Source of the DNA: Lachnospiraceae bacterium
Lineage (GTDB): Bacteria; Bacillota; Clostridia; Lachnospirales; Lachnospiraceae
Length of the DNA: 39,939 nt
Reading direction: 5' to 3'
Assembly (NCBI GenBank): GCA_017408025.1
Contig: JAFQVJ010000064.1
Location: forward strand, 1-39,939
A program made the translations under genes and the position numbers. A model generated the notes under the pieces. The model worked only from the letters and a program-made list of their open reading frames with translations. It did not search any database and was not told the origin of the DNA. Positions 539 to 35,013 of this stretch are shown in pieces. Each line of letters starts with the position of its first letter. Within the stretch, counting starts at the first letter, position 1.

Positions 539-578
539 CGTGAAGACTTTTTAGTTAATAGCATGTAATAAAAATAAC

Positions 579-632
579 ATGAGCACTGGCACGAGAAGAA
601 GTGTCAGCTAAAGCTGGCAGTGCCCGGCTCAG
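579..632 (+). repeat. structured repeat element, copy 1 (multi-stem)
   Basis: The stretch folds on paper as a closing stem GAGC (581-584) with GCTC (627-630), a second stem GGCAC (588-592) with GTGCC (620-624), and an inner hairpin GTCAGC (603-608) with GCTGGC (613-618). A related copy lies at 33979-34029, where the same stems keep pairing with different bases. It sits between a sugar-ABC ATPase gene and the hydrogenase-like gene, and is followed by a terminator and a palindromic repeat. Whether it acts as RNA or DNA is unknown. Confidence 0.6.
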
Positions 633-634
633 TA

Positions 635-676
635 AAGAAGCCAAGTCCCTTGTAAATGAGGGACTTGGTTTCTTTA
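635..676 (+). terminator. intrinsic terminator after the sugar-ABC ATPase gene
   Basis: CCAAGTCCCT (641-650) pairs with AGGGACTTGG (659-668), extended by AAAGAA/TTCTTT flanks. A T-rich tail follows on the + strand, and an A-rich 5' flank would serve the minus strand. It ends the upstream transport operon. Confidence 0.8.
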
Positions 677-678
677 TT

Positions 679-709
679 GTATAGGAAAGTTCCCGAAACT
701 TTCCCTTAT
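679..709. repeat. terminator-associated palindromic repeat, copy 1
   Basis: GGAAAGTT (684-691) pairs with AACTTTCC (697-704) around a short loop. The outer GTATA part is decayed on the right. This is one of five copies in the window, and it begins a few bases after the terminator T-tract at 669-675. Confidence 0.7.
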
Positions 710-847: not shown

Positions 848-911
848 TGTGAAAAATATATGAAATATGAATAACGAGACATTGAACTAATGAATAAGGA
901 GCGTGGATTAT

Positions 912-2864
912 ATGTCAAAGATTAGTAAAGGCTTGGTCTATACCAACGAGAAGTGTGTTGCATGCAATAAGTGTATTTCTGTGTGCCCTGTACCTGGAGC
1001 AAATCATGCAATGATAGATGCAAATGGCAATGCCAGTATTGAAGTAAATGGTGATGCATGCATTTCTTGTGGAGCGTGCTTCGATGCATGTAAGCATGGT
1101 GCAAGATCGTACAATGATGATACAGAGAGATTCTTTGAGGATTTAAAGAAGGGAACGAAGATTTCGTTATTGATAGCACCAGCGTTTATGGCTAATTATC
1201 CTGATCAATATGAGAAGTATCTGGGAATATTAAAGGGGGCAGGAGTAAATCGTTTTATAAGCGTTTCCTTTGGTGCAGATATTACTTCATGGGCGTATTT
1301 GAATTATATACTTAAGAATAATTTTTTAGGCGGTATATCTCAGCCTTGTCCTGCAGTTGTTGGATATATTGAGAAATATATGCCTAGACTTCTTCCAAAG
1401 CTTATGCCTGTACATAGTCCTATGATGTGTGGCGCCATATATGCAAAGAAATACATGGGTATAAATGATAAGCTTGCATTCCTTAGTCCATGTATAGCAA
1501 AGAAAAATGAGATAGATGACCCCAATTGTGGTGGGTATATTACATACAATGTCACTTATGCACATCTTATCGATTACATAAAGAAACATGGTCTTACGGG
1601 CAGAGAACTTGTAAAGGACGAGATAGAGTATGGTCTTGGTTCTGTTTATCCAATGCCGGGAGGTTTGAAAGAAAATGTATTCTGGTTCTTAGGAGATGAT
1701 ATATTTATTCGTCAGGCAGAGGGCGAGAAGCATATGTATGAGTATCTCAAGGAATATCAGGAGCGAATAGACAGCAAGAAGACATTACCATTTATGGTAG
1801 ATGCACTAAATTGTAGTCAGGGTTGTCTCTATGGAACAGGTATAGAAGAAAGCAAGGCACATGGAGATGACACTCTTATGAATCTTTGGAGAATCCGTGA
1901 AAACAGCAAGAGCAAGAAGGGTGCATGGGGAACGAATCTTACACCAAAACAACGTCTTGCTGCTTTAAATAATCAATTTAAGGATTTACGACTTGAGGAT
2001 TTCATCAGAAAATATACCGATAAGTCCAGAACTGTAGGGTTGAAAGATCCATCAGCAGAAGAACTGGATGCTATCTTCAATGAGATGCATAAGAATAATC
2101 ATGCTAAGAGACATATTGACTGTTCAGCTTGTGGTTATGACAGCTGTCAACTTATGGCAGAGGCTATTTATAATGACATCAATTGCAAAGAGAACTGTGT
2201 TCATTACGCGAAGGATTTGGCTGAGTATGAGATGAATGTAGCTAAAGAGCTGACAGATGAGATACAGAAGCAGTCTGAGGAAAAACTGGTACATGCTCAG
2301 AGAGTAGACGAGATTATGGTTGAAGTAACAGAAGATTTTGATAAGATTATGGAATCACTTGACGGAGTGAGCCAGGGTAATGATGGAAACGCAGAGGAGA
2401 GTACGCAGATAGCTCATGATATGAATGATATTAGCAATTCATGCGAAGAAATGATGAGACTGTTTGATAAGATTTCAGAGTTCCTCGTTATGATAGAAGC
2501 AAATAATGATGCAATATTTGGTATAGCATCAAAGACAAATCTTCTTTCTCTCAATGCATCTATAGAGGCAGCAAGAGCCGGAGAGGCAGGTCGTGGATTC
2601 GCAGTAGTTGCTGAGCAGATTAAGACATTGTCGGATTCAAGCCGAAGTGCCGCACAGGATTCAAATCAGAACTCTGTAGAGATAAGAAAGTTCATGGAAG
2701 GGCTTACAGAGCAGGCGGATAATCTGGCTAGATTGATTAAGCAGGTTGATGATCGTGTAAGTAACTTTGCGGCGGCAACAGAGGAGATTTCAGCAAGTAC
2801 AAGAATTGTCGAGGATATGTCAAAGAGTGTACAGGATAAGTTAGGAGAGTTAGTGAAAGCATAA
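912..2864 (+). CDS. cytosolic [FeFe]-hydrogenase-like sensor fused to a methyl-accepting chemotaxis signalling domain
   Basis: A probable redox or H2 sensor that signals to the chemotaxis machinery. Domains of the 650-aa protein: two 4Fe-4S ferredoxin motifs (about residues 12-60), an [FeFe]-hydrogenase large-subunit domain (about 75-360), a CxxC-type 4Fe-4S domain beginning CSACGYDSC near residue 403, and an MCP signalling hairpin (about 490-650) with the conserved NLLSLNASIEAARAGE tip. All four H-cluster ligands are present: C146, C194, C301 and C305. In the first motif the cysteine before the ligand, the proton-relay residue of catalytic enzymes, is proline (SQPCP), which fits a sensory rather than high-turnover role. 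There is no signal peptide or membrane helix, so it should be a soluble receptor. ATG 912 is preferred over GTG 903 because AAGGAG at 896-901 is 10 bases upstream. It has its own promoter and terminator. H2 as ligand is inference. Confidence 0.9.
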   Translation: MSKISKGLVYTNEKCVACNKCISVCPVPGANHAMIDANGNASIEVNGDACISCGACFDACKHGARSYNDDTERFFEDLKKGTKISLLIAPAFMANYPDQYEKYLGILKGAGVNRFISVSFGADITSWAYLNYILKNNFLGGISQPCPAVVGYIEKYMPRLLPKLMPVHSPMMCGAIYAKKYMGINDKLAFLSPCIAKKNEIDDPNCGGYITYNVTYAHLIDYIKKHGLTGRELVKDEIEYGLGSVYPMPGGLKENVFWFLGDDIFIRQAEGEKHMYEYLKEYQERIDSKKTLPFMVDALNCSQGCLYGTGIEESKAHGDDTLMNLWRIRENSKSKKGAWGTNLTPKQRLAALNNQFKDLRLEDFIRKYTDKSRTVGLKDPSAEELDAIFNEMHKNNHAKRHIDCSACGYDSCQLMAEAIYNDINCKENCVHYAKDLAEYEMNVAKELTDEIQKQSEEKLVHAQRVDEIMVEVTEDFDKIMESLDGVSQGNDGNAEESTQIAHDMNDISNSCEEMMRLFDKISEFLVMIEANNDAIFGIASKTNLLSLNASIEAARAGEAGRGFAVVAEQIKTLSDSSRSAAQDSNQNSVEIRKFMEGLTEQADNLARLIKQVDDRVSNFAAATEEISASTRIVEDMSKSVQDKLGELVKA

Positions 2865-12378: not shown

Positions 12379-12400
12379 AAGATTGAAAAGCTGAAAAAGA

Positions 12401-12440
12401 CCAGTACGTCAGTAGTGAAAAACTGATGTGCTGGTTTTGT
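12401..12440 (+). terminator. strong intrinsic terminator of the LytTR operon
   Basis: CCAGTACGTCAGT (12401-12413) pairs over all 13 positions, two as G-U type, with ACTGATGTGCTGG (12422-12434), followed by TTTTGTT. The palindromic repeat begins right at the end of the T-tract. Confidence 0.88.
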
Positions 12441-12473
12441 TGTATAGAAAAGTTCTCGAAACTTTCCTATACA
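12441..12473. repeat. terminator-associated palindromic repeat, copy 2
   Basis: TGTATAG (12441-12447) pairs with CTATACA (12467-12473) and AAAGTT with AACTTT inside, around a CTCG loop. It directly follows the terminator T-tract. Confidence 0.8.
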
Positions 12474-20805: not shown

Positions 20806-20840
20806 AAAGCAGGGAATTCATTATGAACTCCCTGCTTTTT
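20806..20840 (+). terminator. intrinsic terminator between convergent genes
   Basis: AAAGCAGGGA (20806-20815) pairs with TCCCTGCTTT (20829-20838); TTCAT/ATGAA extends the stem inward, and a T-rich tail follows. It ends the membrane-protein transcript before the minus-strand kinase-like gene. Confidence 0.88.
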
Positions 20841-20843
20841 GTT

Positions 20844-20883
20844 TATTGTATAGGAAAGTTCTTCGAAACTTTTCTATACAATA
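20844..20883. repeat. terminator-associated palindromic repeat, copy 3
   Basis: TATTGTATAG (20844-20853) pairs with CTATACAATA (20874-20883); inner arms GAAAGTT and AACTTTT pair with one G-T. It begins 4 bases after the preceding terminator. Confidence 0.8.
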
Positions 20884-20899
20884 AAAATAATCTATATAT

Positions 20900-31881: not shown

Positions 31882-32394
31882 ATGAAAATATTAGTAACAT
31901 ATTCAAGCAAGACAGGAAATACAAAGAAGCTTGCACAGGGGATTTTTCACGGTTTAGGAAATATGGATAAAACTATCCTCCCAATGAATGAGGTAAAGGA
32001 TATGAGTGGCTATGATGTAGTTCTTGCAGGCTACTGGGTAGACAAGGGTGGTGCCAATACAGAGGCAGCAGAGTTTATGAAGACAATAGAGGGTAAGAAG
32101 GTAGGTGTATTTGCAACACTTGCATTCTGGCCAGATTCAGAGCATGGCTTCAAGTCAATTACAGCTGGTGAGGAGCTTGTTAAAGAGAAGAATCACGTTA
32201 TCGGCAGATATATCTGTCAGGGAAAGATTTCAGATGAGATGGTTGCTATGTTTGAGAAGATGGGAGAGAATAGTCCTCACAAGCCAACACCTGAAAAGAG
32301 AAAGAGATATGCAATCTCGGCCAATCATCCTTCACAAGCTGATATCGCTGTGGCAGCAGAGATGTTCCGCGAGAGGATAGAAGCAGATGTTTAA
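31882..32394 (+). CDS. flavodoxin-family protein (HmuF/BilS-like)
   Basis: A 170-aa flavodoxin-fold protein. The FMN phosphate loop is YSSKTGNTKKLA (about residues 6-17). The GYWVDKGGAN segment and FATLAFWPDSEHG are features of the BilS/HmuF-like subgroup that is linked to tetrapyrrole reduction in gut bacteria, and this gene is next to a HemW/HutW-like radical SAM gene and a haem-type importer. It probably supplies electrons to the radical SAM enzyme or reduces its product. This role follows from context and recalled family likeness. GAGAGGAT lies before ATG 31882. Confidence 0.75.
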   Translation: MKILVTYSSKTGNTKKLAQGIFHGLGNMDKTILPMNEVKDMSGYDVVLAGYWVDKGGANTEAAEFMKTIEGKKVGVFATLAFWPDSEHGFKSITAGEELVKEKNHVIGRYICQGKISDEMVAMFEKMGENSPHKPTPEKRKRYAISANHPSQADIAVAAEMFRERIEADV

Positions 32395-32435
32395 ATTTCT
32401 GAGAAAAAAAGATATATGCAGAGAGGATGGGACAG

Positions 32436-33647
32436 ATGTTTAAGGAAAGATTAAAGACACATCACAGTGCCATGAGTGAGGGAAAAAAGTATGTAGCAGG
32501 TATGGGTACACCTCACACAGCTCTCATGAGCGTAAATGAAAATGACAGCAAGCTTGCAACAATCTATATTCATGTGCCATTTTGCAATAAAATATGTAGC
32601 TTTTGCAACATGCGCCGTTCACTTCAAAATCCAGCAGAAAATTATGCGGATCTTGTGGTTAGAGAGATAGAGCAGTATGCAGCCCTTCCATATATAGAAA
32701 CTACAACCTTTGATGCAGTGTATTTCGGAGGTGGCACACCTACCACATTGTCAGGGGAAGCATTAAGCAAGATTCTAAAGGCTCTGAAGGGAAATCTTAA
32801 CTTCACAGAGGATGCAGAGTTTACTATTGAGACAACGGTAACAGAACTGACAGAGGATAAGATGAAGACTCTTATCGAAAATGGAGTAAATCGTTTTTCA
32901 GTAGGCGTACAGACATTTGATGATGAAGGTCGAAAGCAGATGGGACGTATCGGAAGTGGTGAAACTGCATACGAGAGATTAAAGCAGTTAAAATCATACG
33001 ATGGCGTAACAGTCAGCATGGACTTGATTTACAATTATCCAGGTCAGACTATGGAAAGTCTTATGGCAGATTTAGATAAAATCACAGAGCTTAATCTGGA
33101 CGGATTTTCCATGTATTCACTTATCAATATGAAAGAAACAACCATTGATAATGCTGGGAATGAGCGTAATGATGAGGAAATGTTTTACACTATCAGCCAT
33201 ACTATGAAGGAACGAGGATATGATTTCCTTGAGCTGACTAAGATGGTTAAGAGTGACAGGTACCGCTATATTATGAACAGGCACAAGGGTGCAGACACAC
33301 TTCCACTTGGTGCAGGTGCAGGTGGTTCAGTAAATGGACTTGCATTGATGAATCCTATAAAGCTTGATGAGTATGAGCAGAGTGTAAGTGACTTAGCATC
33401 AAGAAAAGGAATGCTTTTCGTACCAGAGTATGTGGAGGTAGTTCGTTTCAAGGGTGATGTGCAGACAGCATATCTTCCAAGAAATGAAGCGATGTATGGC
33501 TCTAATCTAGGAGAGTATGAAAGGTTTCGCCGTGAACTTATTGAACAGGATATGGTATGTGAGACAGCAGACGGTTATCGTTTGACGGAGAAAGGAATCT
33601 TCTGGGGTAACACAATATCAAGACATCTATCACAGATGGTTGGGTAA
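32436..33647 (+). CDS. HemW/HutW-like radical SAM protein
   Basis: A 403-aa radical SAM protein of the coproporphyrinogen-oxidase-like group. The 4Fe-4S cluster motif is CNKICSFC (C50, C54, C57) after YIHVPF, followed by GGGTPTTLSG and the C-terminal HemN-like region. Members of this group include HemW (haem chaperone) and HutW/ChuW/HmuW, which open haem anaerobically to a linear tetrapyrrole and free iron. The location directly after a haem-type ABC importer and a flavodoxin favours the latter group. ATG 32436 is preferred over ATG 32427 because GAGAGGAT lies upstream in the same arrangement as for the flavodoxin gene. Activity is not proven by sequence. Confidence 0.75.
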   Translation: MFKERLKTHHSAMSEGKKYVAGMGTPHTALMSVNENDSKLATIYIHVPFCNKICSFCNMRRSLQNPAENYADLVVREIEQYAALPYIETTTFDAVYFGGGTPTTLSGEALSKILKALKGNLNFTEDAEFTIETTVTELTEDKMKTLIENGVNRFSVGVQTFDDEGRKQMGRIGSGETAYERLKQLKSYDGVTVSMDLIYNYPGQTMESLMADLDKITELNLDGFSMYSLINMKETTIDNAGNERNDEEMFYTISHTMKERGYDFLELTKMVKSDRYRYIMNRHKGADTLPLGAGAGGSVNGLALMNPIKLDEYEQSVSDLASRKGMLFVPEYVEVVRFKGDVQTAYLPRNEAMYGSNLGEYERFRRELIEQDMVCETADGYRLTEKGIFWGNTISRHLSQMVG

Positions 33648-33682: not shown

Positions 33683-33829
33683 GGTTAGATATGTTAACTA
33701 AAGTGCTTTAGGTTAGATATTTTAAACTATAGTATATTAGGCTGGATATTTTTAATTATTGTATATGAGGTAAAATTTCTTAAACTATAGTATATGAGGG
33801 TAAATATCTTAAACTATAGTAGAAAATGA
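33683..33829 (+). repeat. 29-bp imperfect tandem repeat, five copies
   Basis: Units start at 33683, 33711, 33740, 33769 and 33798, consensus GGTTAGATATTTTAAACTAT then AGTATATGA. Each of the better copies holds the palindrome ACTATAGT. The array lies just after the radical SAM gene. Confidence 0.85.
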
Positions 33830-33874
33830 AGATTATTTAAAAACTTAAAAATTAAGTAAATAGTTGATGATTGG

Positions 33875-33917
33875 TCGCCGAGCCATTCGACATTGTGTCG
33901 AGGCTCGGCGATTTTTT
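33875..33917 (+). terminator. intrinsic terminator of the haem-type cluster
   Basis: TCGCCGAGCC (33875-33884) pairs with GGCTCGGCGA (33902-33911), with TCGAC/GTCGA pairing inside, followed by TTTTTT. Strong and G/C-rich compared with its surroundings. Confidence 0.9.
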
Positions 33918-33920
33918 CTT

Positions 33921-33957
33921 GTTTAATAGGAAAGTTCTTCAAACTTCCCTATTAAAC
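33921..33957. repeat. terminator-associated palindromic repeat, copy 4 (variant arms)
   Basis: GTTTAATAGG (33921-33930) pairs with CCTATTAAAC (33948-33957), with AAGTT/AACTT inside. The outer part differs from the other copies on both arms yet still pairs, which points to selection on base pairing. Confidence 0.8.
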
Positions 33958-33978
33958 AAAAAACGCTCCGCTAAGGAT

Positions 33979-34065
33979 GAGCACTCGCACGAGAAGAAGG
34001 TGTCAGCTGAAGCTGACCGTGCTCTGCTCACAAAGTGGAGCAAGTCCCTCATGAATGAGGGATTT
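33979..34065 (+). repeat. structured repeat element, copy 2
   Basis: GAGCAC (33979-33984) pairs with GTGCTC (34019-34024), GTCAGC (34002-34007) with GCTGAC (34012-34017), and AAGTCCCTCAT (34042-34052) with ATGAGGGATTT (34055-34065). Compared with copy 1 at 579-668, several positions have changed on both sides so that pairing is kept. Confidence 0.65.
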
Positions 34066-34074
34066 AGGGAGTTG

Positions 34075-34098
34075 AAGTGGACTTGTCCACTTTGTTCT
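34075..34098 (+). terminator. short intrinsic terminator before palindrome copy 5
   Basis: AAGTGGAC (34075-34082) pairs with GTCCACTT (34085-34092) around a TT loop, followed by TGTTCT. An alternative partner for its right arm exists at 34031-34039 (CAAAGTGGA with TCCACTTTG, 34086-34094), so two exclusive folds are possible. Confidence 0.6.
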
Positions 34099-34132
34099 TG
34101 TATAGGAAAGTTCTCGAAACTTTCCTATACAA
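34098..34132. repeat. terminator-associated palindromic repeat, copy 5
   Basis: TTGTATAGG (34098-34106) pairs with CCTATACAA (34124-34132), with AAAGTT/AACTTT inside and a CTCG loop. This is the most symmetric copy. It is followed by ACAAAAAGCTTCG, closely matching the sequence after copy 4. Confidence 0.85.
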
Positions 34133-34185
34133 CAAAAAGCTTCGTTAAGGAATTAATCGCAGCTGCTTTGCAAATACGATTTTTT

Positions 34186-34236
34186 GAGCACTCGCAAGAA
34201 AAGAAGATGTCAGAGTATAGAATTCTAGCTGCCACT
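34186..34236 (+). repeat. degenerate third copy of the structured element
   Basis: GAGCACTCGCA followed by AGAAGATGTCAG repeats the start of the element at 33979. After that the sequence diverges, though GTCAGA and TCTGAC still pair. It looks like a decayed tandem duplicate. Confidence 0.55.
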
Positions 34237-34318: not shown

Positions 34319-34418
34319 ACCTACTATAGGTTTGGAAGTGTATTCCAGTAGGTAAAAATTCCAGTATGGGAAGCTACAAATACCAACTATGTCGTCGAAA
34401 GTGTATTCCAGTAGGTAA
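34319..34418 (-). repeat. 63-nt tandem hairpin pair, locus B
   Basis: On the minus strand, TTACCTACTG (34418-34409 and 34355-34346) is followed after 19 nt by TAGTTGGTAT and TAGTAGGTGC respectively, giving two hairpins exactly 63 nt apart. The pattern, loop length and period equal those at 24745-24852. A GTGTATTCCAGTAGGTAA direct repeat on the + strand marks both units. Confidence 0.75.
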
Positions 34419-34450
34419 TATTTCTGGTAATATTTCAAGAATAAGATTCT

Positions 34451-34515: not shown

Positions 34516-35013
34516 ATGGAGTTTTGTGAAGAGAATGATGGTGTAAGGATAACATTTAAAAGAGCAACCAAGGACGAGCTTGAGATGTTGGTTAAAACCC
34601 GCATAGAAGTGTTAAGGGCAGCTAATAAGCTGGATGAAAACGTGGATATGAAAGATGTGGAAGAAAATTCAAGAATATATTATAATAAAGCGTTGGATGA
34701 TGGAATACATGTAGCGTATCTAGTTTTTCATGATGAAGCTTTTGTAGGTGCCGGAGGTGTAAGCTTCTTCCAAGTGCTACCTACATATGACAATCCAACT
34801 GGCTGCAAGGCCTATATAATGAATATGTATACACGACCAGAATATAGAAGAAGAGGGATAGCGTATAAAGTGCTGAATTTGTTAGTAAATGAGGCTAAAG
34901 AACGTGGCATTTCCCATATCTCATTGGAAGCCACAGAAGATGGCAGACCACTTTATGAGAAATATGGCTTTGTGGGAATGATGGATGAAATGCAATTATG
35001 CTCATCACATTAA
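34516..35013 (+). CDS. GNAT-family N-acetyltransferase
   Basis: A 165-aa acetyltransferase that uses acetyl-CoA; the acceptor is unknown. The fold is seen from ITFKRATKDELEMLVKTRIE at the start, the acetyl-CoA pyrophosphate loop MYTRPEYRRRGIAYKVL (about residues 101-117), and the end ISLEATEDGRPLYEKYGFVG. AAGGAG lies upstream of ATG 34516. It has its own promoter and no obvious terminator before the 13-bp repeat array. Confidence 0.92.
   Translation: MEFCEENDGVRITFKRATKDELEMLVKTRIEVLRAANKLDENVDMKDVEENSRIYYNKALDDGIHVAYLVFHDEAFVGAGGVSFFQVLPTYDNPTGCKAYIMNMYTRPEYRRRGIAYKVLNLLVNEAKERGISHISLEATEDGRPLYEKYGFVGMMDEMQLCSSH

What the first reader, a model, noticed from the sequence alone, without database searches (positions are those of the whole stretch)
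33875..34132. Palindromic repeat attached to the downstream side of intrinsic terminators, five of five copies
The palindrome (core GGAAAGTT / AACTTTCC, usually extended by GTATA / TATAC) occurs at 679-709, 12441-12473, 20844-20883, 33921-33957 and 34098-34132. Every copy starts 0-10 bases after the T-tract of a separate hairpin terminator: at 641, 12401, 20806, 33875 and 34075. The terminators are unrelated in sequence; the palindrome is constant. Copy 4 has changed its outer arms (GTTTAATAG / CTATTAAAC) and still pairs, so pairing appears to be kept. A second hairpin after the terminator could protect RNA 3' ends of read-through transcripts, be bound by a protein, or act in DNA. I know of no described element with this rule.
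Basis: seen in the sequence. Interest (0 to 1): 0.75.

Follow-up and report, generated by a model that had tools for sequence, protein, structure and literature searches.

The report
Small mobile element behind transcription terminators
The palindrome that follows transcription terminators in this gut bacterium is the left end of a small mobile DNA element that settles just behind the stop signals of genes, and relatives with similar ends occur in several families of Clostridia.

Summary
Of 77 copies with a loop-defined direction, 61 lie 5-16 nt behind a terminator hairpin, against 48 of 600 T-matched intergenic sites. The palindrome is not a stand-alone second hairpin. It is the left end of a 125-180 bp interspersed element with a folded core and a hairpin + T-rich right end, often TTTGTTCT. 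Two loci filled in one species have bare terminators in another; nine full-length sister-species copies are 97-99% alike. Matches occur in 68 of 397 family genomes, similar ends in other Clostridia families. Pairing covaries but is strand-symmetric (10 G-T, 9 A-C of 591 cells), while terminators carry 12.5% G-U on the transcribed strand only: DNA structure rather than RNA. The mobilising enzyme was not found: Y1, IS110 and UG26 proteins do not track the element. Class C group II introns share the target rule. Verdict: a terminator-seeking mobile mini-element, new variant of a known kind.

The parts
574..630 (+). remnant of an older element (core hairpin B5), just upstream of the terminator of copy 1
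   Evidence: blastn match 88% to B5, query 1-58
641..668 (+). terminator hairpin before copy 1; probably derived from the older element
   Evidence: sequence; the hairpin is also in the list (row 668-641)
674..708 (+). palindrome copy 1 (outer right arm broken)
12400..12438 (+). terminator hairpin and T-tract before copy 2
   Evidence: -23.7 kcal/mol
12440..12473 (+). palindrome copy 2 (palindrome only)
20806..20842 (+). terminator hairpin and T-tract before copy 3
   Evidence: -19.8 kcal/mol
20843..20884 (+). palindrome copy 3 (palindrome only)
33875..33919 (+). terminator hairpin and T-tract before copy 4, downstream of the radical-SAM gene 32427-33647
   Evidence: -28.7 kcal/mol
33920..33957 (+). 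palindrome copy 4 = left end of a full-length element (GTTTAATA subfamily)
33955..33978 (+). lead: A-tract + CGCTCCGCTAAGGAT
   Evidence: 100% match, query 3-26
33976..34029 (+). core hairpin B5 with a bulge of about 10 nt on its 5' side
   Evidence: fold; covariation
34031..34098 (+). module B3, ending in the right end of the element: hairpin GTGGACTTGTCCAC + TTTGTTCT
   Evidence: 100% match, query 2-69
34098..34132 (+). palindrome copy 5, directly behind the right end of the copy-4 element
34133..34213 (+). continuation of the second element: degenerate lead, module C (34149-34188), truncated B5 (34185-34213)

Best explanation
The palindrome is the left terminus of a short (about 125-180 bp) non-autonomous mobile element. 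SHOWN: most copies lie directly behind the T-tract of an intrinsic terminator, in one direction; full-length copies end on the right in a hairpin with a T-rich tail (TTTGTTCT in type B, T-rich such as TTTTTT in type A); two gene ends filled in one species carry a terminator without the element in another; copies in a sister species are 97-99% alike; a like palindrome and a TTGTTC right end recur in other Clostridia families around different cores. INFERRED: a protein acting in trans recognises the folded left palindrome and the right-end hairpin as DNA, cuts the donor after hairpin + T-rich tail and joins it behind another hairpin + T-tail, which any intrinsic terminator offers. The A-tract beside the palindrome could pair with the T-tract of the target. 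Landing behind a terminator does little harm, so copies persist and decay by deletion. Any effect on the host would be secondary.
For: Target: 61 of 77 against 48 of 600 T-matched sites. With direction set by the lead, not by the flank: 18 of 22 in G006 (a 23rd row, L098, repeats G004's L040), 5 of 5 in G004, 1 of 2 in G001/2/7, 11 of 12 in other genera. Upstream gene transcribed towards the element in 57 of 63 placed copies, median 75 nt from its end. Full-length form and right end. Empty sites: G006 L063 against G000 L016, and G000 L023 against G007 L039. Recent spread: 9 full-length G006 copies, 97.1-99.4% to the query. Wider spread: 68 of 397 genomes of the family, many with partial matches only; covariance-model matches in eight genomes of five other Clostridia families; TTGTTC 95-128 nt behind the palindrome in 17 of 20 fetched loci of seven such genomes, with a terminator in front in 14 of these 17. 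DNA-like structure: 12 of 22 pairs changed on both sides, 89 such cells against 25 shuffled; G-T 10 against A-C 9 of 591 cells, whereas the 61 terminator hairpins in front of copies have G-U in 112 of 894 pairs on the transcribed strand and 3 of 744 on the other.
Against: No enzyme found, and no longer version with the same ends among the 14 places in G343, a 3-contig genome. 14 of 77 copies fail the terminator test; four of them show a hairpin by eye. Several left-truncated copies with an intact right end do not lie behind a terminator (L069, L072, L081, L082). Empty sites come from different species, so exact cut points are not proven. The G-U yardstick used minimum-energy folds for terminators and a fixed consensus structure for the element; minimum-energy folds of the element give 18 of 1008 and 36 of 1032. 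Palindrome-only copies could be decayed elements or a separate minimal form.
Confidence: 0.72

Rival explanations
1. Functional second hairpin in RNA: the palindrome is kept behind terminators to back up termination or to protect the 3' end of read-through transcripts.
For: Constant place and direction behind terminators; covarying arms; hairpin clusters at transcript ends are reported to be common (PMC8355165, abstract).
Against: An A-tract, not a T-tract, usually follows the palindrome; pairing is strand-symmetric, unlike the terminators in front; the palindrome travels with a 125-180 bp element, is missing behind terminators of the same gene ends in relatives, and its outer tracts lose pairing freely.
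Confidence: 0.08
2. REP/RAYT-like or IS200/IS605-type element moved in trans by a Y1 tyrosine transposase that cuts single-stranded hairpins.
For: Hairpins near both ends, no target duplication seen by eye, strand-symmetric pairing. Longer Y1 proteins (235-285 aa), one or two per genome, occur in some genomes of the family.
Against: 8 of 25 element-positive genomes tested have no Y1 match at E up to 0.001, among them a complete one (G254, whose own element match is weak, 9.7e-7); G006, with the freshest copies, has one Y1 with a stop. None of 24 Y1 loci carries the element; one weak palindrome-like match in L183. The IS200 of the own genome has unrelated hairpins.
Confidence: 0.15
3. SINE-like retroelement: an RNA ending at the terminator-like right end of the element is copied behind terminators by a group II-like reverse transcriptase.
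For: Class C group II introns insert directly behind terminators (PMC4424553, PMC8919778, passages); the right end looks like a terminator; G000, G002, G006 and G007 have RVT_1 matches.
Against: No shared reverse transcriptase: one of G000's two is UG26, strong in 5 of 29 element-positive genomes, not in G006, and present in G203, which had no element match. No RVT_1 match in G004, with 32 element matches but 74% completeness. No RNA-strand bias, no group II or other Rfam match at gathering score in the window.
Confidence: 0.12
4. Selection alone: an element that inserts anywhere is tolerated only behind terminators.
For: 57 of 63 placed copies lie downstream of a gene pointing at them; such places are the least harmful.
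Against: The junction sits within a few bases of the T-tract, far above T-matched intergenic sites, and so it does in the fresh G006 copies.
Confidence: 0.05

Closest known systems
Class C (IIC) group II introns
   Same: Insert immediately behind intrinsic terminators, many of them in Firmicutes (PMC4424553 and PMC8919778, passages).
   Different: They are ribozymes with a reverse transcriptase; this element is 125-180 bp, without a gene, without Rfam match at gathering score in the window, and with strand-symmetric hairpins.
REP / BIME sequences moved by RAYT
   Same: Short palindromes, many copies, mosaic with other modules, palindromicity kept by paired changes (PMC2817692, passages).
   Different: No Y1 gene framed by the palindrome found; fixed direction and fixed target; defined right end; other sequence.
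Pneumococcal BOX, RUP and SPRITE elements
   Same: Mostly under 200 bp, folded, clustered and nested; BOX is modular; SPRITE resembles a terminator (PMC3049150, passages).
   Different: BOX and RUP have terminal inverted repeats and target duplications; the passages that I saw do not describe insertion behind terminators.
Repeated stem-loops at gene ends and DNA uptake sequences
   Same: Repeated palindromes in intergenic space, often at gene ends (PMC1590033, passages).
   Different: Uptake sequences in inverted pairs form the stem-loop themselves; here the repeat follows an unrelated terminator.

Membership tests
REP / RAYT | cognate Y1 transposase gene framed by inverted copies of the palindrome | tested here: not met
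   0 of 24 Y1 loci carry it; 8 of 25 element-positive genomes have no Y1 match
REP / RAYT | conserved GTAG at the foot of the palindrome | tested here: not met
   no conserved GTAG in the 42 aligned copies
MITE | short, no gene, many near-identical copies | tested here: met
MITE | terminal inverted repeats | tested here: not met
   left TATAGGAAAGTTC and reversed right end AGAACAAAG do not match; read by eye, no alignment computed
MITE | target site duplication | tested here: inconclusive
   none seen by eye in the G006 flanks; no same-species empty site was available
Class C group II intron | insertion behind an intrinsic terminator | tested here: met
Class C group II intron | group II ribozyme in the element | tested here: not met
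   no Rfam match at gathering score in the window; the weak list to E = 5 on three loci holds no group II family
IS200/IS605 | recognised hairpins near both ends and a Y1 transposase for them | tested here: inconclusive
   hairpins present near both ends but unlike each other; no Y1 partner found
Structured RNA | covarying pairs with G-U pairs on the RNA strand | tested here: not met
   covariation met, strand bias absent: 10 G-T against 9 A-C

The most novel reading that the evidence does not exclude
A so far undescribed, Clostridia-wide superfamily of mini-elements with like ends (left palindrome ATAGGAAA/TTTCCTAT, right hairpin + TTTGTTCT) around exchangeable folded cores, moved by an unknown enzyme that reads 'hairpin + T-rich tail' as a DNA structure, both at its own right end and at any host terminator, so that transcription terminators become a universal landing pad.
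Probability: 0.4. Interest if true: 0.82.

Novelty: new variant of a known kind. Interest (0 to 1): 0.62.

Why it matters
It would be another class of mobile DNA, besides class C group II introns, that uses transcription terminators as a landing site, and it occurs in gut and rumen Clostridia. In a strict and rough count, 6 of 42 strong terminators at gene ends in 440 kb of this genome carry the palindrome. The enzyme behind it could be a tool for harmless insertion behind genes. Such repeats also break assemblies (many G006 contigs end in or beside the element) and can mislead searches for structured RNAs.

Tried and rejected
Chance: rejected. Y1 transposases, IS110 transposases and reverse transcriptases as the common mobiliser: no consistent partner. 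A longer version framed by both ends in the 3-contig genome G343: none among 14 places, by reading the list. Viral contigs: 0 matches for two patterns; plasmids: none; phage collection: nine records with partial matches, two looked at and found without annotation, not followed further. Named genomes: the first palindrome pattern gave none, the core pattern 32 stretches, all titled Lachnospiraceae MAGs. A copying (fold-back) origin of the outer right arm was suggested by single copies such as C48:67084, an 85-bp perfect palindrome, but pairing in the outer tract is hardly better within a copy than between copies, so I dropped it as a general rule. RNA strand from folding energy: no clear difference, the bottom strand is lower in 19 of 27.

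Rows dropped before counts: of 126 fuzzy matches 36 failed the rule and 6 of these were put back by eye; 3 of the 90 kept were dropped as unrelated; 16 of 93 had no clear direction. In one search one G006 row (L098) is a G004 contig. The identity figure for G006 held loci of other species (L097, L098) among its sources, so I use instead. In one search the displayed direction was chosen by the stronger terminator; I use only directions fixed (G343: terminator in front in 7 of 8 loci with a found palindrome; 5 loci had none by the pattern, L237 only an unrelated match) or by the right end (other families: 14 of 17). In one search two second rows (L251 +, L259 -) were set aside as spurious.

Full report
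WHAT IS THERE. The five copies are confirmed at the stated places, and the core word is in excess in the window (7 against 1.44 expected). The window is contig C40 of an unnamed 2.35 Mb genome, G000. G000 has 72 exact cores and none in the reversed control.

THE RULE, WITH CONTROLS. In the 713 kb that I held (overlaps counted) I counted 93 copies. The loop (CTCGA type) gives a direction that does not use the flanks; it was clear for 77. In that direction a hairpin of at most -8 kcal/mol with a T-rich tail ends 5-16 nt before the core in 61 of 77. The same test gives 16 of 600 at random intergenic positions and 48 of 600 at positions with a matched T-run. 73 of 77 have the T-run. On the 3' side, at any distance, 25 of 77 pass. 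Of the 14 misses, four (C44:63122, C68:7804, C16:137568, C69:12551) show a hairpin by eye; others have only a T-run or another element in front. Of 74 copies with context, 57 of the 63 that are neither at an edge nor in a predicted ORF have the upstream gene pointing at them; 40 lie between co-directional and 17 between convergent genes, 6 have the upstream gene pointing away.

IT IS ONE END OF A LONGER ELEMENT. Behind the palindrome comes a constant order: A-tract, CGCTCCGC lead, a bulged hairpin (module A or B5), then a right end; in some copies B5 follows the A-tract without the lead. In G000, 40 places cover at least half of the 168-nt form; 40 is also the number that the tool scored out of 167 candidates. 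In G006 the form is 172 nt, and the copies that reach the right end finish in hairpin + TTTGTTC(T) followed by unrelated sequence. The shorter type A form of G000 ends in hairpin + TTTTTT. The window copies 4 and 5 are such a pair: the copy-4 element runs from 33920 to 34098, and copy 5 sits behind its right end. Palindrome-only copies (window copies 2 and 3) and left- or right-truncated copies also exist; some left-truncated ones are not behind a terminator.

MOBILITY. The gene end that carries the element in G000 L016 has a terminator without it in G006 L063; the gene end that carries it in G007 L039 has a bare terminator in G000 L023; a third locus shows a shared right end with an internal deletion in G006. 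The species are diverged, so these are orthologous gene ends rather than identical alleles. Nine full-length G006 copies are 97.1-99.4% identical to the query (median 98.8%), and 22 G000 type B copies 80-99% (median 95.7%). Many G006 contigs end in or beside the element.

SPREAD. The 172-nt form matches 68 of 397 sampled genomes of the family, in 65 of 334 genera, at E up to 1e-6; at most a few places per genome were scored and many matches are partial. With direction fixed by the lead, terminators precede 18 of 22 copies in G006 (a 23rd row, L098, repeats a G004 copy), 5 of 5 in G004, 1 of 2 in G001/2/7 and 11 of 12 in other genera. In G343, direction fixed, 7 of 8 judged loci have one. A covariance model of the left part finds 15 of 293 genomes of the class at E up to 1e-4, eight of them in five other families. 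In 20 fetched loci of seven of these (G584, G487, G505, G657, G680, G566, G574) the core is different, yet a palindrome ATAGGAAA/TTCCTAT is followed 95-128 nt later by TTGTTC in 17, as a rule behind a hairpin-like sequence (read by eye); the misses are L253 and the single loci of G566 and G574. Oriented by that right end, 14 of the 17 have a terminator in front.

DNA RATHER THAN RNA. Across 27 elements of many genera, 96.4% of cells of the consensus structure pair, 12 of 22 pairs change on both sides, and the covariation score is 0.41 against 0.14 in shuffles and 0.01-0.06 in slid versions. The number of further pair types is not beyond the shuffles (27 against 25.0; 89 of 500 reach it). In a hairpin kept as RNA, G-U pairs should gather on the RNA strand. 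The 61 terminator hairpins in front of the copies do this: 112 of 894 pairs are G-U on the transcribed strand, 3 of 744 on the other. The element has 10 G-T and 9 A-C of 591 cells; the palindromes of G000 have 20 G-T and 32 A-C of 882. Minimum-energy folds of the element give 18 of 1008 and 36 of 1032. So the pairing is kept without clear regard to strand, as expected for folded or cruciform DNA, or for copying from arm to arm. In the outer T/A tract the pairing is hardly specific to the copy.

HOW IT MAY WORK. The right end of the element (hairpin + T-rich tail) resembles its target (terminator hairpin + T-tract). The simplest reading is an enzyme that cuts behind a DNA hairpin with a T-rich tail, on the donor at the right end and at the target behind a terminator, and that recognises the left palindrome. 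This is inference. I looked for the enzyme and did not find it. Y1 transposases are missing from 8 of 25 element-positive genomes, and none of 24 Y1 loci carries the element. IS110 is missing from G000. UG26 reverse transcriptase is strong in 6 of 42 genomes, 5 of 29 element-positive ones, not in G006, and present in G203 without an element match. No gene framed by both ends was seen in the list for G343. Most other enzyme families were not searched.

AGAINST KNOWN SYSTEMS. Class C group II introns share the target rule (PMC4424553, PMC8919778; passages seen) but are ribozymes with a reverse transcriptase. REP/RAYT, BOX, RUP and SPRITE share size, folding or modularity (PMC2817692, PMC3049150; passages seen) but not, in those passages, the target rule. 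A survey of stem-loops in low-GC Firmicutes found no large repeated family behind them (PMC1590033, passages). The listings of nine searches of the paper library showed no description of this element; subscription journals are mostly not held. Statements on G-U content of RNAs in general and on IS200/IS605 anatomy are from my own knowledge.

VERDICT. Observation confirmed and extended; interpretation replaced by a terminator-seeking mobile mini-element. New variant of a known kind, because non-autonomous mobile repeats are known, but neither this target rule nor these ends could be matched to a described family.

Noticed in passing
window 33690-33840: Degenerate tandem repeat of about 30 bp (GGTTAGATATTTTAAACTATAGTATATTAG and variants) before the terminator of copy 4, seen.
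   Followed up: no
window 34320-34430: AGTGTATTCCAGTAGGTA occurs twice behind the second element, in front of the GNAT-like gene at 34516-35013.
   Followed up: no
window 31882-33647: BilS-like flavodoxin next to a HutW/ChuW-like radical SAM protein, both below the curated cut-offs; possibly a haem or bilin reduction unit.
   Followed up: partly
window 903-2864: 653-aa protein with an N-terminal [FeFe] hydrogenase-like part and weak C-terminal chemotaxis-receptor matches.
   Followed up: partly
L019:7045-7145 (G000 C48 about 67084): The palindrome lies inside an 85-bp perfect palindrome whose flanks are exact inverted copies, without a separate terminator hairpin.
   Followed up: partly
L143 (G000 C5:11340-12548): Stand-alone reverse transcriptase of the UG26 class, relatives in G007 and G002; not linked to the element.
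   Followed up: yes
L036:285-330 (G000 C45): IS200-like element; a short palindrome TTTTTTTGTATACACATACAATAAAA behind a terminator lies next to its left end, perhaps a gutted copy of the palindrome.
   Followed up: no
MT836069, MT835472 and seven more records of the phage collection: Faecal 'Bacteriophage sp.' scaffolds with partial matches to the element; the two opened carry no annotation; phage or bacterial DNA cannot be told apart.
   Followed up: partly
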